Virus record (IMG/VR): IMGVR_UViG_3300004369_000072 | Coordinates: 1 to 33,052 of that record | Strand: one strand, 5' to 3' | DNA length: 33,052 nt | Source: a virus | Part shown: positions 5,336-30,009 of the stretch, in pieces | Numbering within the stretch: position 1 is the first letter of the stretch | How the letters are laid out: each line of letters opens with the position of its first letter | Program-made: the position numbers and the translations under genes | Notes under the pieces: generated by a model | Databases searched by the model: none | What the model was told of the DNA's origin: nothing | The model's input: only the letters and a program-made list of their open reading frames with translations

Positions 5336-7300
5336 ATGGCCATTGGTCGTATATCGGGGTCAGTGTTAAAGTCAAATTTGACTAGAAACGGCGTTGACCT
5401 TGCGTTTGAAACAAACCTATTATATCTTGACGTGACCAACGCACGAGTAGGTATAGGCACTTCCGAACCCACAACAGCACTAGACGTATCCGGCACAGTG
5501 AATGCAACAGCGTTCACAGGAGATGGATCTGGTTTAACTGGACTGTCCAACATCGCTAATTCAAGTTTAATAAACAGCACAATCACTGTGGTTGGAGATG
5601 ACTCCTCAGGCACAGCAGTCTCCCTGGGAGAGACATTTAAAGTGGCAGGTGCTGGAGGAGTGACCACGGCAGTGTCAGGAGACACAGTCACCATAACAGG
5701 ACCAACGGGCACACTGTCCAATGTGGTAGAAGATACCACACCACAATTGGGTGGCAGTTTAGATGTCAATGGTAACAGCATTGTTTCAACATCCAACGGA
5801 AACATTGTGCTTGATCCTGACGGAACTGGTGTTATTCAAGTCAATGCTTCTGTTATTCCCGAAACAGATTTATCTATCAGTCTAGGATCTCCTACAAAAA
5901 GATTTACAGATGCTTATTTCGGTTCAGGCACAGTGTATATTGGTGATGAATCAATTTCTTCCAGTGATGCAGGACTAGTATTTTCAGCACCGATATCGGT
6001 AGAAGGTGGTCTTACACAGATATCAGATGATACTACAGCAACTATTATTAATGCAACAAAGATTGGCAACTCTGTCACAACCGTGAACAGTTTTGACACT
6101 GCGGATTATGACAGTGTATTATATTATACCACAACATTAGATGAATCAAACAACAAAATAGAAGTTGCCAAGATTTCTCTATGTCATGACACCGCAACTT
6201 CTTACTCGGCACAGTCGGGAACTGCTACATCAGACACAACATCTGTTCACACATACAGCACAGACATCGACAGCGGAACTGTTAGATTAAATTTACTTGG
6301 ATCGTCTGCTGTCAACAGTATGACTGCTTACCAATTGGGATTGGGAGATAACAGCACAGCAGGAACCAGTGGACATACTGCTGTTGTAACACCGAACACT
6401 ATATCGGGTTCTTCTACAACCAGTATCGACTCTTGGTCTGCTAGTACCTATCGAGCAGTAAAATATTTTGTAAGTGTAAAAAACACAGACACCAACGAAG
6501 TTAATAATATAGAGGCAATTGTATTACACGATGGTTCTTCTGCTGATATTGTAAATTACAATATTGTAAAAACAGGCAACGAAGAATTATGCACACTGTC
6601 GACAGGATACGACAGCGGCACTGTACACCTATATGCTGTACCAAACAACTCACAAACGTTAAGAATTCAATTGCACAAAATAATTTTATCAGACAGCGAA
6701 TCGGTTGTTAACTACGACAACGTGTATGTACTACCCACAAAAACAATATCGGGTAGCAGTTACACAACAATAGACACATTTGAAAATATCAAAATTAATG
6801 GTGCTGTGTATTTTGTCACTTCAACCAATACCACAGATGGTCTATACACTGCTTCAGAAGTGTATGTAACCACAAATGGAACTCAATCATTCGTTGTGCA
6901 TGGTCCAGAGTTGGCTATGGGCGGACAGATATATTTTCAAACATCACTGTCAGGAAACAAAATAAATCTAAAAGCATACACCACGGGTTCCAGCAACACT
7001 GTCATCAATGCCTATAGAATTGGTATGTACAGATTTGAACAAGGGGGAGATTTTGCTCAAACTGTTACTCTCGATAGTACACAAACTATTTCAGGTGCAA
7101 AAACATTCACAGCAGGTGTGCTTACAGATACCATACAGTCACCGGGCTCTAATGCTGATCTAACCATAGATGCATCTGGTACAGGTGCTGTACAAATACT
7201 GACACAAAAAGTAATAATGTCCAATTTACCAATAGCAGACCCCAATGTTGCTGGACAATTGTGGAACAATGCTGGTGTTTTGAATATTTCTGCTGGTTAA
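5336..7300 (+). CDS. Tail fibre-like structural protein, type A, with three tandem beta domains
   Basis: A 654-residue probable fibre. Residues 1-43 match the type A N-terminus of the gene at 475 (MAIGRISG...FETNLLYLDVTNARVGIGT). An EDTTPQLGG-SLDVNG-SIVSTSN module (about 132-155) is also shared with it. Next comes a D-SISLGSPTKRFTDAYFG-TVYIGDESI module (about 178-207), common in marine phage fibres. Three tandem domains of about 97 residues follow (roughly 240-337, 354-450 and 468-565), each starting with T-I-SF-Y-like residues and containing HDG/NG and SGTV-L strands. A QTISGAKTFTAGV segment and a short tail ending NNAGVLNISAG close the protein. It has no QYADIAERF-type C-terminal domain. 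The ribosome site GGGAGA precedes the ATG. The fibre role is inferred; receptor specificity could lie in the tandem domains. Confidence 0.83.
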   Translation: MAIGRISGSVLKSNLTRNGVDLAFETNLLYLDVTNARVGIGTSEPTTALDVSGTVNATAFTGDGSGLTGLSNIANSSLINSTITVVGDDSSGTAVSLGETFKVAGAGGVTTAVSGDTVTITGPTGTLSNVVEDTTPQLGGSLDVNGNSIVSTSNGNIVLDPDGTGVIQVNASVIPETDLSISLGSPTKRFTDAYFGSGTVYIGDESISSSDAGLVFSAPISVEGGLTQISDDTTATIINATKIGNSVTTVNSFDTADYDSVLYYTTTLDESNNKIEVAKISLCHDTATSYSAQSGTATSDTTSVHTYSTDIDSGTVRLNLLGSSAVNSMTAYQLGLGDNSTAGTSGHTAVVTPNTISGSSTTSIDSWSASTYRAVKYFVSVKNTDTNEVNNIEAIVLHDGSSADIVNYNIVKTGNEELCTLSTGYDSGTVHLYAVPNNSQTLRIQLHKIILSDSESVVNYDNVYVLPTKTISGSSYTTIDTFENIKINGAVYFVTSTNTTDGLYTASEVYVTTNGTQSFVVHGPELAMGGQIYFQTSLSGNKINLKAYTTGSSNTVINAYRIGMYRFEQGGDFAQTVTLDSTQTISGAKTFTAGVLTDTIQSPGSNADLTIDASGTGAVQILTQKVIMSNLPIADPNVAGQLWNNAGVLNISAG

Positions 7301-7307
7301 TAATCGG

Positions 7308-7345
7308 TTGACAACTTATTCCTTTTATTGTATATTGTATAAATA
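7308..7345 (+). promoter_or_regulatory. Overlapping sigma70-like and late promoters
   Basis: TTGACA (7308-7313), an exact 17-base spacer and TATATT (7331-7336) form a near-consensus sigma70-type promoter. The perfect late consensus TATAAATA follows at 7338-7345. The gene at 7399 could thus be read by host polymerase early and by phage-modified polymerase late. This tandem occurs in the window only here and, rearranged, before gp32. Confidence 0.75.
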
Positions 7346-7347
7346 AT

Positions 7348-7367
7348 TATGTTGCGAGTGCAACATA
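7348..7367 (+). promoter_or_regulatory. 5' leader stem-loop
   Basis: TATGTTGC (7348-7355), loop GAGT, GCAACATA (7360-7367) forms a perfect 8-bp hairpin. It begins about 5 nt after the predicted sigma70 start near 7343. A 5'-terminal hairpin can protect an mRNA from decay. The predicted late start near 7351 would fall inside the first arm, so the structure would serve the early transcript best. Confidence 0.6.
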
Positions 7368-7398
7368 TACACACAAACACAAACAAAAGGAGCCAACA

Positions 7399-7797
7399 AT
7401 GGCAAACACACAAAGAAACGCTTATGAAATCAGAGCGGACCTATTAGGACTAGCAAAAAATATCGCTGAGTTCAATTACACAATCAAACAACAAGAGTAC
7501 GAAACATCTGTGAGAAAAGATGGCGACCAAGTTGTTGCTGAGTTCAAATACCCAGTAGTAACTGCCGAGTCAATCATTGAAACTGCAAAGAAATTCAATG
7601 AATTCGTGACTGGCAATATGCCAAGCAACGAAGCGACTAAAATTTTAATGGAAAACATACAGAACTACGCGAGCAATGTTAATAAGCAACTTGCTGAAAG
7701 TATGTCACCAGACACAATCCAAAAAAATGTAAAAACTTTCCAAGACAACGTGAAGAAAGCAACCGAAGCATTCTTCAACGGTGCCGTTCAGAAGTAA
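7399..7797 (+). CDS. Conserved phage protein of unknown function, strongly promoted
   Basis: A 132-residue, charged, largely helical protein with no membrane segment. It starts MANTQRNAYEIRADLLGLAK, a pattern like a small protein family found in T4-like cyanophages whose role is not known to me. The C-terminal third (QKNVKTFQDNVKKATEAFF) is an amphipathic helix reminiscent of phasins, but that resemblance is weak. Expression signals are among the strongest in the window: a near-perfect sigma70-type promoter, a perfect TATAAATA, a 5' hairpin and an AAAGGAG ribosome site ending about 8 nt before the ATG. That suggests high expression, probably from early infection onward. It stands alone between the fibre genes and the small-gene cluster. 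Confidence 0.85.
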   Translation: MANTQRNAYEIRADLLGLAKNIAEFNYTIKQQEYETSVRKDGDQVVAEFKYPVVTAESIIETAKKFNEFVTGNMPSNEATKILMENIQNYASNVNKQLAESMSPDTIQKNVKTFQDNVKKATEAFFNGAVQK

Positions 7798-17911: not shown

Positions 17912-17919
17912 TATAAATA
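17912..17919 (+). promoter_or_regulatory. Late promoter, full TATAAATA, 5 nt from ATG
   Basis: A perfect TATAAATA ends 5 nt before the ATG at 17925. With T4-like spacing, transcription would start at about 17925, the A of the start codon, so the message would be leaderless. Confidence 0.8.
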
Positions 17920-27000: not shown

Positions 27001-27049
27001 TTGACCTTGTATAAATAAGTGTGTATATTATTCATATGTCTAATATACA
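27001..27049 (+). promoter_or_regulatory. gp32 promoter region: sigma70-like, late motif and inverted repeat
   Basis: TTGACC (27001-27006), 17 bases, TATATT (27024-27029) makes a sigma70-type promoter whose spacer contains a full TATAAATA (27010-27017). A perfect 9-bp inverted repeat, TGTATATTA (27022-27030) and TAATATACA (27041-27049), covers the -10 box. On a late transcript starting near 27023 it would form a 5' hairpin. As DNA it could act as an operator. T4 gene 32 is also read from more than one promoter class and is autoregulated. The AAGGAGG ribosome site at 27081-27087 is the strongest seen in the window. Confidence 0.7.
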
Positions 27050-27095
27050 TTTAGGCAAAATAAAACAAACATAGGCAAACAAGGAGGCTTACATT

Positions 27096-28115: not shown

Positions 28116-28931
28116 ATGTTATTCTCGATAGACGGAATACCTTCATTTAGAATACGGCTGTATGAAAACTCTGTTGCCGACAAGTGGCATTCTTTGGTTA
28201 AAGAAACATACGTCGGCGACGGAGAAGATTTTGATAACAAAAGATCTTTTCATTATCTAAGAAGTAAAGAAGAGGTAAGAAACGATTTGTTAGAGTCTAT
28301 TCATGAAATTAACAATTTTTTAAGAACTAACTTTATTAAATTACCAGAGATCATTGATTGGAATGACGACAATCTTTATAACAAGTTACACATCTGTTTT
28401 GAAAAATTATCTGGAGGCTTTGATAATCCAACTAAATTAATTAAAATTGCCCCATTACATATTAAAGAAAGAATTAGAGATTTAAACTTTTGTGTACACA
28501 CTTTAGAACATAATGACATTGATAAAGAAAGAAAGCAATTAGATGTTCAATGGTCTAAAAAAAGAGAAAGAACATTAAGAATAAAACTGGAAAAAAGAGA
28601 ATATGATGATATTCAATTTAATAGAAAAGAAAAAGAAGTGTATCTAGCGTATAATGAGCTTGGAAAAAATTACATAGATTTATGGAGAGATAATTTACCA
28701 ATTAATTATGGCAATCTTAAAAATAATCACTACATAGGCAAAGATATTATGATATCATTAGAAAATAGAAAAGATATTTTTGAAAAAGATTTTGTGAAAT
28801 GGATGTTAGATAATAAACTAGATCCTTATAATAAAAAACACGGTATTGGTTTATTAGCAATTGGTACTTGTGATATTATCGATATAAAACATTTGACAAA
28901 AGACAGTAAAATAGATATAATAATTGAATAA
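28116..28931 (+). CDS. Unknown 271-aa protein between gp32 and uvsX
   Basis: A 271-residue soluble protein starting MLFSIDGIPSFRIRLYENSV. It contains DFDNKRSFHYLRSKEEVRND, an EIINDFL-like helical region, HIKERIRDLNFCVHTLEHND, KREYDDIQFNRKEKEVYLAYNE-like charged segments, and a C-terminal GIGLLAIGTCDIIDI strand pair. It is rich in Asn, Ile and Lys, in line with the local AT-rich codon use. No catalytic motif is evident, but the position between ssDNA-binding and recombinase genes, with gaps of 12 and 10 bases, suggests a link to DNA metabolism or expression in the same period. The start has no good ribosome site. I do not recognise the family. Confidence 0.75.
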   Translation: MLFSIDGIPSFRIRLYENSVADKWHSLVKETYVGDGEDFDNKRSFHYLRSKEEVRNDLLESIHEINNFLRTNFIKLPEIIDWNDDNLYNKLHICFEKLSGGFDNPTKLIKIAPLHIKERIRDLNFCVHTLEHNDIDKERKQLDVQWSKKRERTLRIKLEKREYDDIQFNRKEKEVYLAYNELGKNYIDLWRDNLPINYGNLKNNHYIGKDIMISLENRKDIFEKDFVKWMLDNKLDPYNKKHGIGLLAIGTCDIIDIKHLTKDSKIDIIIE

Positions 28932-28941
28932 GGAATAAACT

Positions 28942-30009
28942 ATGACAAAACCATTTGACGCAACAAAATTTAGAAAAAGTATAACAAAATCTATTCAAGG
29001 ACTAGGTATTGGTTTCAATGATCCTACAGATTGGATTTCAACAGGTAACTATGCTCTTAACTATCTCATATCAGGAGATTTCAATAAAGGCATTCCACTA
29101 GGCAAAGTATCTGTTCTAGCAGGAGAATCAGGAGCAGGTAAATCTTATATTGCTTCGGGTAATATTATTAAAAATGCTCAAGCACAAGGTATCTATGTTA
29201 TCTTAATCGATACTGAGAATGCTCTAGATGAGGCGTGGTTAAAAGCTCTTGATGTGGACACATCAGAAGAAAAATTATTAAAATTAAGTCTATCCATGGT
29301 AGATGATGTAGCAAAAACTATTTCAGAGTTTATGAAAGGCTACAAAGAAGAACACGCAGAAAAAAGAGAAACTGCTCCAAAAATTTTATTTGTAATTGAC
29401 TCTTTAGGTATGTTATTAACACCTACAGATGTTAATCAGTTTGAAGCAGGAGAAATGAAAGGTGACCTAGGAAGAAAACCCAAAGCACTAACAGCACTGG
29501 TGCGTAACTGTGTGAATATGTTCGGGTCTTACAACGTAGGATTGATAGCAACCAATCACACCTATGCATCACAGGATATGTTTGATCCAGATGATAAGAT
29601 ATCGGGTGGACAGGGTTTTATCTATGCATCATCTATTGTGATAGCAATGAAGAAATTAAAACTAAAAGAAGACGAAGCTGGCAATAAAATATCCGAAGTG
29701 AGAGGTATAAGAGCCGCTTGTAAAGTAATGAAAACTCGTTATGCTAAACCGTTTGAAAGTGTACAAGTTAAGATTCCATACGATACTGGCATGGATCCAT
29801 ACTCTGGATTAGTAGATCTGTTTGAGAAAAAAGGTCTATTAACACAAACAGGAAACCGTTTAAAATATGTAGATTCTAAAGGCAAAGAGATGTTAGACTT
29901 CCGAAAAAACTGGACTGGTGATAAATTAGACATAGTTATGGAGGATTTCCGTAATGTTAAACAACCAGAACAGGAGACAGTAAATGCAGGAGAATCAAAT
30001 GACGCATGA
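28942..30009 (+). CDS. uvsX: UvsX recombinase (RecA-like)
   Basis: A 355-residue RecA-family strand-exchange protein (T4 UvsX has 391). The Walker A motif is GESGAGKS at 61-68. The catalytic-type Glu (E92, in ILIDTENALDEAW) and a Walker B-like ILFVIDSLGM (about 148-157) follow. GLIATNHTYASQDMFDPDD and KISGGQGFIYASSIVIAMKK match the loop and core region. The C-terminus (GDKLDIVMEDFRNVKQPEQ) is acidic. It should form filaments on gp32-coated single-stranded DNA with UvsY help, for recombination-dependent replication. It follows the unknown 271-aa gene by 10 bases with a weak AAGGAA-like ribosome site. Its 3' end overlaps the next small gene. Confidence 0.95.
   Translation: MTKPFDATKFRKSITKSIQGLGIGFNDPTDWISTGNYALNYLISGDFNKGIPLGKVSVLAGESGAGKSYIASGNIIKNAQAQGIYVILIDTENALDEAWLKALDVDTSEEKLLKLSLSMVDDVAKTISEFMKGYKEEHAEKRETAPKILFVIDSLGMLLTPTDVNQFEAGEMKGDLGRKPKALTALVRNCVNMFGSYNVGLIATNHTYASQDMFDPDDKISGGQGFIYASSIVIAMKKLKLKEDEAGNKISEVRGIRAACKVMKTRYAKPFESVQVKIPYDTGMDPYSGLVDLFEKKGLLTQTGNRLKYVDSKGKEMLDFRKNWTGDKLDIVMEDFRNVKQPEQETVNAGESNDA

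What the first reader, a model, noticed from the sequence alone, without database searches (positions are those of the whole stretch)
7308..7367. Tandem sigma70-like and late promoters with a 5' stabilising hairpin
TTGACA-N17-TATATT is nearly ideal and is followed directly by TATAAATA and an 8-bp hairpin with a GAGT loop. The downstream 132-aa protein of unknown function should be highly expressed throughout infection, which makes it a good candidate for an important uncharacterised phage factor.
Basis: partly seen in the sequence, partly recalled or inferred. Interest (0 to 1): 0.55.

Follow-up and report, generated by a model that had tools for sequence, protein, structure and literature searches.

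The report
Dual-promoter, ACA-leader phage expression cassette
A small unknown phage gene carries a host-type and a late phage promoter, a hairpin and an unusual A/C-only leader in front of it; its relatives keep the leader while their promoters are swapped around, which suggests a transplantable on-switch for strong expression.

Summary
The DNA observation is confirmed: TTGACA-N17-TATATT (7308-7336), TATAAATA (7338-7345) and a perfect 8-bp GAGT-loop hairpin (7348-7367). Of 99 distinct upstream regions of environmental homologues, 98 have a NATAAATA octamer and 57 (56 by script) have both it and a sigma70-like promoter. The octamer lies in the sigma70 spacer, on its -10, or 3 to about 20 nt downstream, so the two elements seem to have moved independently. 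L042 and L044, with identical coding sequence, share exactly 32 nt of leader, starting at the predicted +1 G; upstream of that L042 has only a sigma70 promoter, L044 only a late one. Such ACA repeats are a tested translation enhancer in Salmonella. The hairpin is not general: 22 of 98 predicted late transcripts have one. Best reading: a late, often also host-driven, well-translated cassette. High expression is inferred; I found no RNA data, codon usage is average, and the protein's function stays unknown.

The parts
7308..7313 (+). sigma70-type -35, TTGACA
   Evidence: -35 kept at 17-nt spacing in homologues
7331..7336 (+). sigma70-type -10, TATATT; predicted start about 7343
   Evidence: start position inferred from usual spacing
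7338..7345 (+). T4-type late promoter octamer TATAAATA; predicted +1 = G7351
   Evidence: octamer in 98 of 99 distinct upstreams; 6th nt after it is G in 86 of 98
7348..7367 (+). inverted repeat, 8-bp stem with GAGT loop; 5-bp part 7351-7364 lies in the predicted late RNA
7369..7388 (+). A/C-only unstructured ACA-rich leader, putative translation enhancer
   Evidence: enhancer role by analogy with PMC3879156
7389..7392 (+). Shine-Dalgarno GGAG, 6 nt before ATG
   Evidence: GGAG in 99 of 99 upstreams, 5-8 nt before ATG
7399..7797 (+). 132-aa protein of unknown function (YEIRxDLLGLA family), predicted mostly helical at low confidence
   Evidence: structure models poor

Best explanation
This is a compact 5' control region that keeps one small gene transcribed by two programmes and well translated. 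Host sigma70 RNA polymerase would use TTGACA-N17-TATATT early; the phage gp55-type late sigma would use TATAAATA later, starting at G7351. Both RNAs carry an unstructured A/C-only leader with repeated ACA just before a GGAG Shine-Dalgarno, which by analogy with tested Salmonella leaders raises translation initiation. In some lineages the RNA also begins with a hairpin at the +1, which would shield the 5' end from 5'-end-dependent decay; this is an accessory. Shown by sequence: the elements, their conservation, promoter turnover with retention of leader and ORF. Inferred: use of the promoters, start sites, enhancement, stabilisation, high protein level. The protein's own function is not known.
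For: Conservation in 99 distinct upstreams: octamer in 98; octamer plus sigma70-like promoter in 56 by script, 57 with L001, whose -35 was cut off; spacer 17 in 56 of 58 hits. In 27 representatives sigma70/late/both = 15/26/14; shuffle means 0.05/2.0/0.003. Octamer-to-(-10) register varies: 0, -15, +3, +5, +7, about +20; at least 13 changes of architecture and 9 of sigma70 presence on a 70-row protein tree with many weak forks. L042 versus L044 and L045: 336 nt of coding sequence identical, identical 32 nt upstream, unrelated promoters beyond. ACA at least 4 in 99 of 99 against 2 of 101 controls. Same leader in the PAC2 and PA5oct homologues. gp55 family found in G002, a contig carrying a homologue, and in PAC2. 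Literature passages: PMC2984593, PMC1524935, PMC3879156.
Against: No expression data. 41 of 99 upstreams have no sigma70-like promoter (42 by script) and one has no octamer, so duality is not universal. In 26 the -10 and octamer are one sequence, so only the -35 argues for two promoters there. 76 of 98 late leaders have no stable 5' hairpin, and that the 22 start at +1 is partly built in, because folding began there. Pairs changed on both sides in the hairpin are no more than in shuffles (1; 186 of 500 shuffles reach it). Codon adaptation is average (0.589, 12th of 23). PA5oct's record marks some neighbours as seen by ESI-MS/MS but not this homologue. ACA enhancement was shown in Salmonella, not in this host, which is unknown. 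gp55 was found in only 4 of 17 searched records, most of them fragments. In S-PM2 a few genes that are middle genes in T4 did not show a middle profile by Q-PCR (PMC2984593 passage).
Confidence: 0.68

Rival explanations
1. The hairpin and unstructured leader are a translational operator: phage ssDNA-binding protein (gp32) or another RNA-binding protein loads at the 5' structure and coats the leader to repress translation, as in T4 gene 32.
For: The window's own gp32 gene (27096; family) has a like layout: late octamer inside a TTGACC-N17-TATATT promoter, hairpin at the predicted +1, A/C-rich leader, GGAGG. In gp32 relatives 50 of 52 octamer-bearing upstreams have a 6-bp or longer stem starting at the predicted +1 (shuffled 8.6%). 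T4 precedent: PMC3014915 passages.
Against: Most focal leaders have no 5' structure (76 of 98); T4's coated leader is A+U-rich, this one is A/C-only; conservation of ACA specifically fits an enhancer better (inference).
Confidence: 0.14
2. Only the late promoter is real; the sigma70-like match is a chance or a relic.
For: 41 of 99 upstreams lack it; several late-only sequences have, by eye, a terminator-like hairpin just upstream instead.
Against: 15 of 27 representatives against 0.05 in shuffles, with a spacing of 17 in 56 of 58 hits; L042 has the sigma70 promoter alone with an intact leader and ORF.
Confidence: 0.12
3. The inverted repeat at the start is a DNA operator for a repressor rather than an RNA hairpin.
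For: Operators often overlap +1 (general knowledge); the repeat is symmetric DNA; compensatory change is scarce.
Against: Arm sequence, loop length (3 to about 20) and length differ between lineages; 3'-arm changes are of the U-A to U-G type plus one U-A to C-G pair in two related sequences, as RNA pairing predicts.
Confidence: 0.06

Closest known systems
Overlapping early and late promoters of T4-like phages RB49, S-PM2 and Syn9 (PMC2984593, passages read)
   Same: sigma70-like and NATAAATA promoters in front of one gene
   Different: there described above all for homologues of T4 middle genes; here on an unknown gene, with several registers and promoter swaps at the predicted +1
ACA translation-enhancing motifs of Salmonella yifK and dppA (PMC3879156, abstract and passages read)
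   Same: repeated ACA directly upstream of the Shine-Dalgarno
   Different: here a phage leader that is almost wholly A/C; whether any sRNA pairs with it was not tested
5'-terminal stem-loop mRNA stabilisers such as ompA (reference titles and a passage on unpaired 5' nucleotides seen in PMC3997798; mechanism otherwise recalled)
   Same: stem beginning at the predicted 5' end
   Different: only in some lineages; stability untested
T4 gene 32 leader operator (PMC3014915, passages read)
   Same: 5' structure followed by an unstructured leader over the RBS
   Different: simple hairpin rather than pseudoknot, A/C-rich rather than A+U-rich, and mostly absent in the focal family

Membership tests
T4-type late promoter | TATAAATA (or NATAAATA) at -13 to -6 | tested here: met
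   octamer in 98 of 99 distinct upstreams; G at predicted +1 in 86 of 98; actual start not mapped
T4-type late promoter | gp55-type late sigma in the same genome | tested here: inconclusive
   in G002 and PAC2, which both carry a homologue; 4 of 17 records overall; not searched for in the window itself, a 33-kb record
T4-type late promoter | transcripts start there late in infection | not testable with these tools
   no RNA data
sigma70 promoter | TTGACA and TATAAT-like hexamers 17 nt apart | tested here: met
   conservation
Overlapping early/late promoter pair (RB49, S-PM2 type) | both promoters within the same upstream region | tested here: met
   56 of 99 by script (57 with L001); in 26 of these -10 and octamer coincide
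ACA translation enhancer | multiple ACA just upstream of the SD | tested here: met
   99 of 99 have at least 4; 2 of 101 controls
ACA translation enhancer | replacement of ACA lowers translation | not testable with these tools
   needs a reporter
5'-terminal stem-loop stabiliser | stem at or within a few nt of the 5' end | tested here: inconclusive
   all 22 hairpin-bearing late leaders start at the predicted +1, but folding began at that base, and in the window the DNA repeat extends 3 nt upstream of it
gp32 translational operator | 5' structure plus unstructured leader, bound by gp32 | tested here: inconclusive
   layout shared with the gp32 gene; 5' structure absent in 76 of 98 focal leaders; binding not testable

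The most novel reading that the evidence does not exclude
The leader plus ORF is a transplantable cassette whose boundary is the transcription start: phages swap the promoter (host-type, late, or both, in several arrangements) at +1 and move the unit between tail, metabolic and replication neighbourhoods, while an A/C-only ACA leader is held nearly constant as a translation-priority tag that gp32 mRNA carries in weaker form.
Probability: 0.3. Interest if true: 0.68.

Novelty: new variant of a known kind. Interest (0 to 1): 0.5.

Why it matters
It gives a natural experiment on promoter logic: one gene, one leader, many promoter arrangements, including an exchange at the predicted start with the coding sequence unchanged. 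It makes testable whether repeated ACA before the Shine-Dalgarno is a phage device for strong translation, and it points to a widespread small protein whose expression seems to be under strong selection and for which my searches found no study.

Tried and rejected
Named-phage search with the protein (tblastn, 50,697 records): no match at E 0.01; a 73-aa consensus gave 5 records at E 3 to 9, taken as chance. A profile search then found the Arenbergviridae homologue; P0001 finds it in 11 named records, all Pseudomonas phages. With the profile at E up to 5, nothing was found in HTVC008M, S-PM2, Phosso, T4 or P-SSM2; two weak hits in Atu_ph07 (E 0.014 and 0.016) were not followed.

Pfam PF24182 (G1RFP) hits 40 of 48 members, best E 0.00046; in the window protein the match is 15 residues and below the cut-off. 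A six-frame search with the family found nothing in 4 phage records and rang in 10 of 14 control genomes, none over the cut-off. Rejected as chance. The literature search for that name listed nothing relevant. PHROG hits of the family were weak (best 0.0056) and scattered. NCBIfam and PADLOC were not searched. Solved-structure profile search: best E 0.095.

Two AlphaFold jobs gave poor models (pLDDT 44.5 and 53.2), so no fold search was run. Codon adaptation did not single the gene out. Searches for an A/C or CA-rich leader in print; for PA5oct transcriptome or protein papers. No title or abstract opening listed there describes this leader or gene; the lists were capped and the library holds open papers only.

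A profile search with the focal family in 7 contigs reached through gp32 relatives found nothing at E 0.01; they may be fragments.

Full report
What is there. The window is a 33,052-base virus record. Its terminase is nearest, among named phages, to Pseudomonas phages of the Arenbergviridae such as PAC2 and PA5oct (54.9% identity), and the record carries head-tail adaptor, tail-sheath-stabiliser (gp15) and gp32-like genes. At 7308-7398, in front of a 132-aa ORF, lie TTGACA, 17 nt, TATATT, then TATAAATA, an 8-bp hairpin, a 20-nt A/C-only stretch and GGAG. TATAAATA by itself is not surprising in this window (4 found, 2.4 expected); the sigma70 match is, and so is the fold.

Conservation. With the window, 189 sequences were held; 4 had no recognisable start and 5 had under 95 nt upstream and were dropped; the other 180, some of them the same contig fetched twice, collapse to 99 distinct 95-nt upstreams. 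By the script 56 have both promoters, 42 only the octamer, 1 (L042) only sigma70. One of the 42, L001, lost the first T of TTGACA to the cut, as one search shows, so the corrected numbers are 57, 41 and 1. The sigma70 spacer is 17 in 56 of 58 hits. Among 27 representatives, 15 have sigma70, 26 the octamer and 14 both; 300 rounds of dinucleotide shuffles give means of 0.05, 2.0 and 0.003.

Two elements, not one. If TATAAATA were only a sigma70 -10, it would keep one place. Instead the octamer starts at the -10 itself (26 upstreams), 15 nt before it, inside the spacer (17), 7 nt after it (4, plus L001), 3 after (3), 5 after (3), or about 20 after (3). In the 26 fused cases the -35 is the only sign of a second promoter. 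On a 70-row protein tree the architectures need at least 13 changes, presence of sigma70 9 and of the hairpin 4; 25 of its 66 inner branches are open. The clearest case is L042 against L044 and L045: 336 nt of coding sequence are identical, the 32 nt upstream are identical, and 60-120 nt upstream identity is 22-28%; L042 has only a sigma70 promoter, the others only an octamer. The shared stretch begins at a G that is the 6th base after TATATT in L042 and the 6th after CATAAATA in L044 and L045. Those two have a second, overlapping octamer 4 nt further on, which searches used; counted from it, +1 would fall 4 nt later. With the last octamer taken throughout, the 6th base is G in 86 of 98 upstreams. 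T4 spacing is from PMC1524935.

The leader. Every one of 99 leaders has at least 4 ACA in the 20 nt before GGAG (mean 5.6), and 97 have an A/C run of 14 or more. Of 101 control ORFs with the same kind of Shine-Dalgarno, 2 and 1 do; the controls were chosen mechanically and not all need be genes. In 157 ORFs of four longer sequences the three highest ACA counts (7, 7, 6) are the focal gene, the next (5) is gp32 of G001, and at 4 gp32 of G003 ties with a 64-aa ORF; the window's gp32 has 3 (gp32 of G001 and G003 named by likeness to the window's). In 14 contigs, A/C runs of 18 or more mark this leader in 13; other such runs occur, but few are of the ACACAAACACA kind. The leader outlasts the protein: a profile search finds a 74-aa homologue in Pseudomonas phage PAC2 (E 6e-8; hhalign probability 96%), and its upstream reads CTAAATA ... 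ACACAAACACACAAGGAG; PA5oct has the same. CTAAATA is the late motif reported for Aeh1 (PMC1524935). ACA repeats at this place raise translation in Salmonella, and replacing four of them in dppA cost over 100-fold (PMC3879156 abstract). Applying this to the phage is inference.

The hairpin. Of 98 predicted late transcripts, 22 fold at -4 kcal/mol or better in their first 45 nt, all from the first base. Part of this is built in, since folding began at that base; in the window the DNA repeat extends three bases further up. The 5' arms are of two unrelated kinds, GTTGC (5 sequences) and GTTATATT or GCTATATT (17); the latter contain the sigma70 -10, so that arm is constrained, while the 3' arms and loops differ. 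For 10 of those 17, distinct in this stretch, 97.8% of 90 cells pair against 22-59% for slid versions; one pair is compensatory, in two related sequences, four vary only by U-A to U-G, and one fails in two sequences. Pairs changed on both sides are no more than in shuffles (186 of 500); cells paired and the covariation score are higher (9 of 500 each). In the window's own version only the loop varies. Protection of the 5' end by such stems is known (titles and one passage in PMC3997798; otherwise recalled).

A sibling. The gp32 gene of the window has a like layout. A scan with its protein gave 599 relatives, best 80 kept; with the window, 9 were too short, leaving 65 distinct upstreams, 52 with NATAAATA and 9 with NCTAAATA. 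50 of the 52 and 8 of the 9 have a stem of 6 or more starting at the predicted +1, against about 9% in shuffles, with clearly different arm sequences. By my strict rule only 12 of the 65 have a sigma70-like promoter. T4 gene 32 is autoregulated through a 5' pseudoknot and unstructured leader (PMC3014915 passages), so gp32 control of the focal gene is a live rival.

Neighbourhoods differ. In the window's group the gene lies between a large ORF (tail-fibre-like by my reading; no family for 5336-7300) and, further down, gp15; L107, L065 and L070 have a like ORF layout. It lies near a 2OG-Fe(II) oxygenase in L007, and near clamp, clamp-loader, helicase-loader, exonuclease, Hsp20 or peroxiredoxin genes in L054, L036, L042 and L155 of the other large clade (20 neighbours scanned). 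In PAC2 it stands between a baseplate hub gene and a hypothetical gene.

Judgement. A late, often dual-promoter, ACA-leader cassette is the best reading (0.68). Each ingredient is known; the combination, its turnover at +1 and the near-constant leader are the new part. The expression level and the protein's job are open.

Noticed in passing
window 27001-27095, and gp32 relatives L215-L294: The gp32 gene has TTGACC-N17-TATATT with TATAAATA inside the spacer, a hairpin at the predicted late +1 and an A/C-rich leader; 50 of 52 octamer-bearing gp32 upstreams have such a stem, with varied arms.
   Followed up: partly
PA5oct NC_071039 165164-165388 (PQE65_gp238); PAC2 XAI94104: Distant 74-aa homologue of the focal protein in cultured Pseudomonas jumbo phages, annotated hypothetical, with the same ACA leader in both.
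   Followed up: partly
L034, L036, L037, L045, L054, L154, L158 and others, just upstream of the octamer: Several late-only sequences show, by eye, a terminator-like hairpin immediately before or touching the NATAAATA octamer, perhaps ending the upstream gene.
   Followed up: no
window 28893-28921: The only other TTGACA-N15-19-TATAWT match of the window lies before a RecA/uvsX-like gene (my reading) at 28942.
   Followed up: no
window 17912-17919: TATAAATA directly after a terminator-like stem and T-run and only a few bases before an in-frame ATG; if used, the transcript would be nearly leaderless.
   Followed up: no
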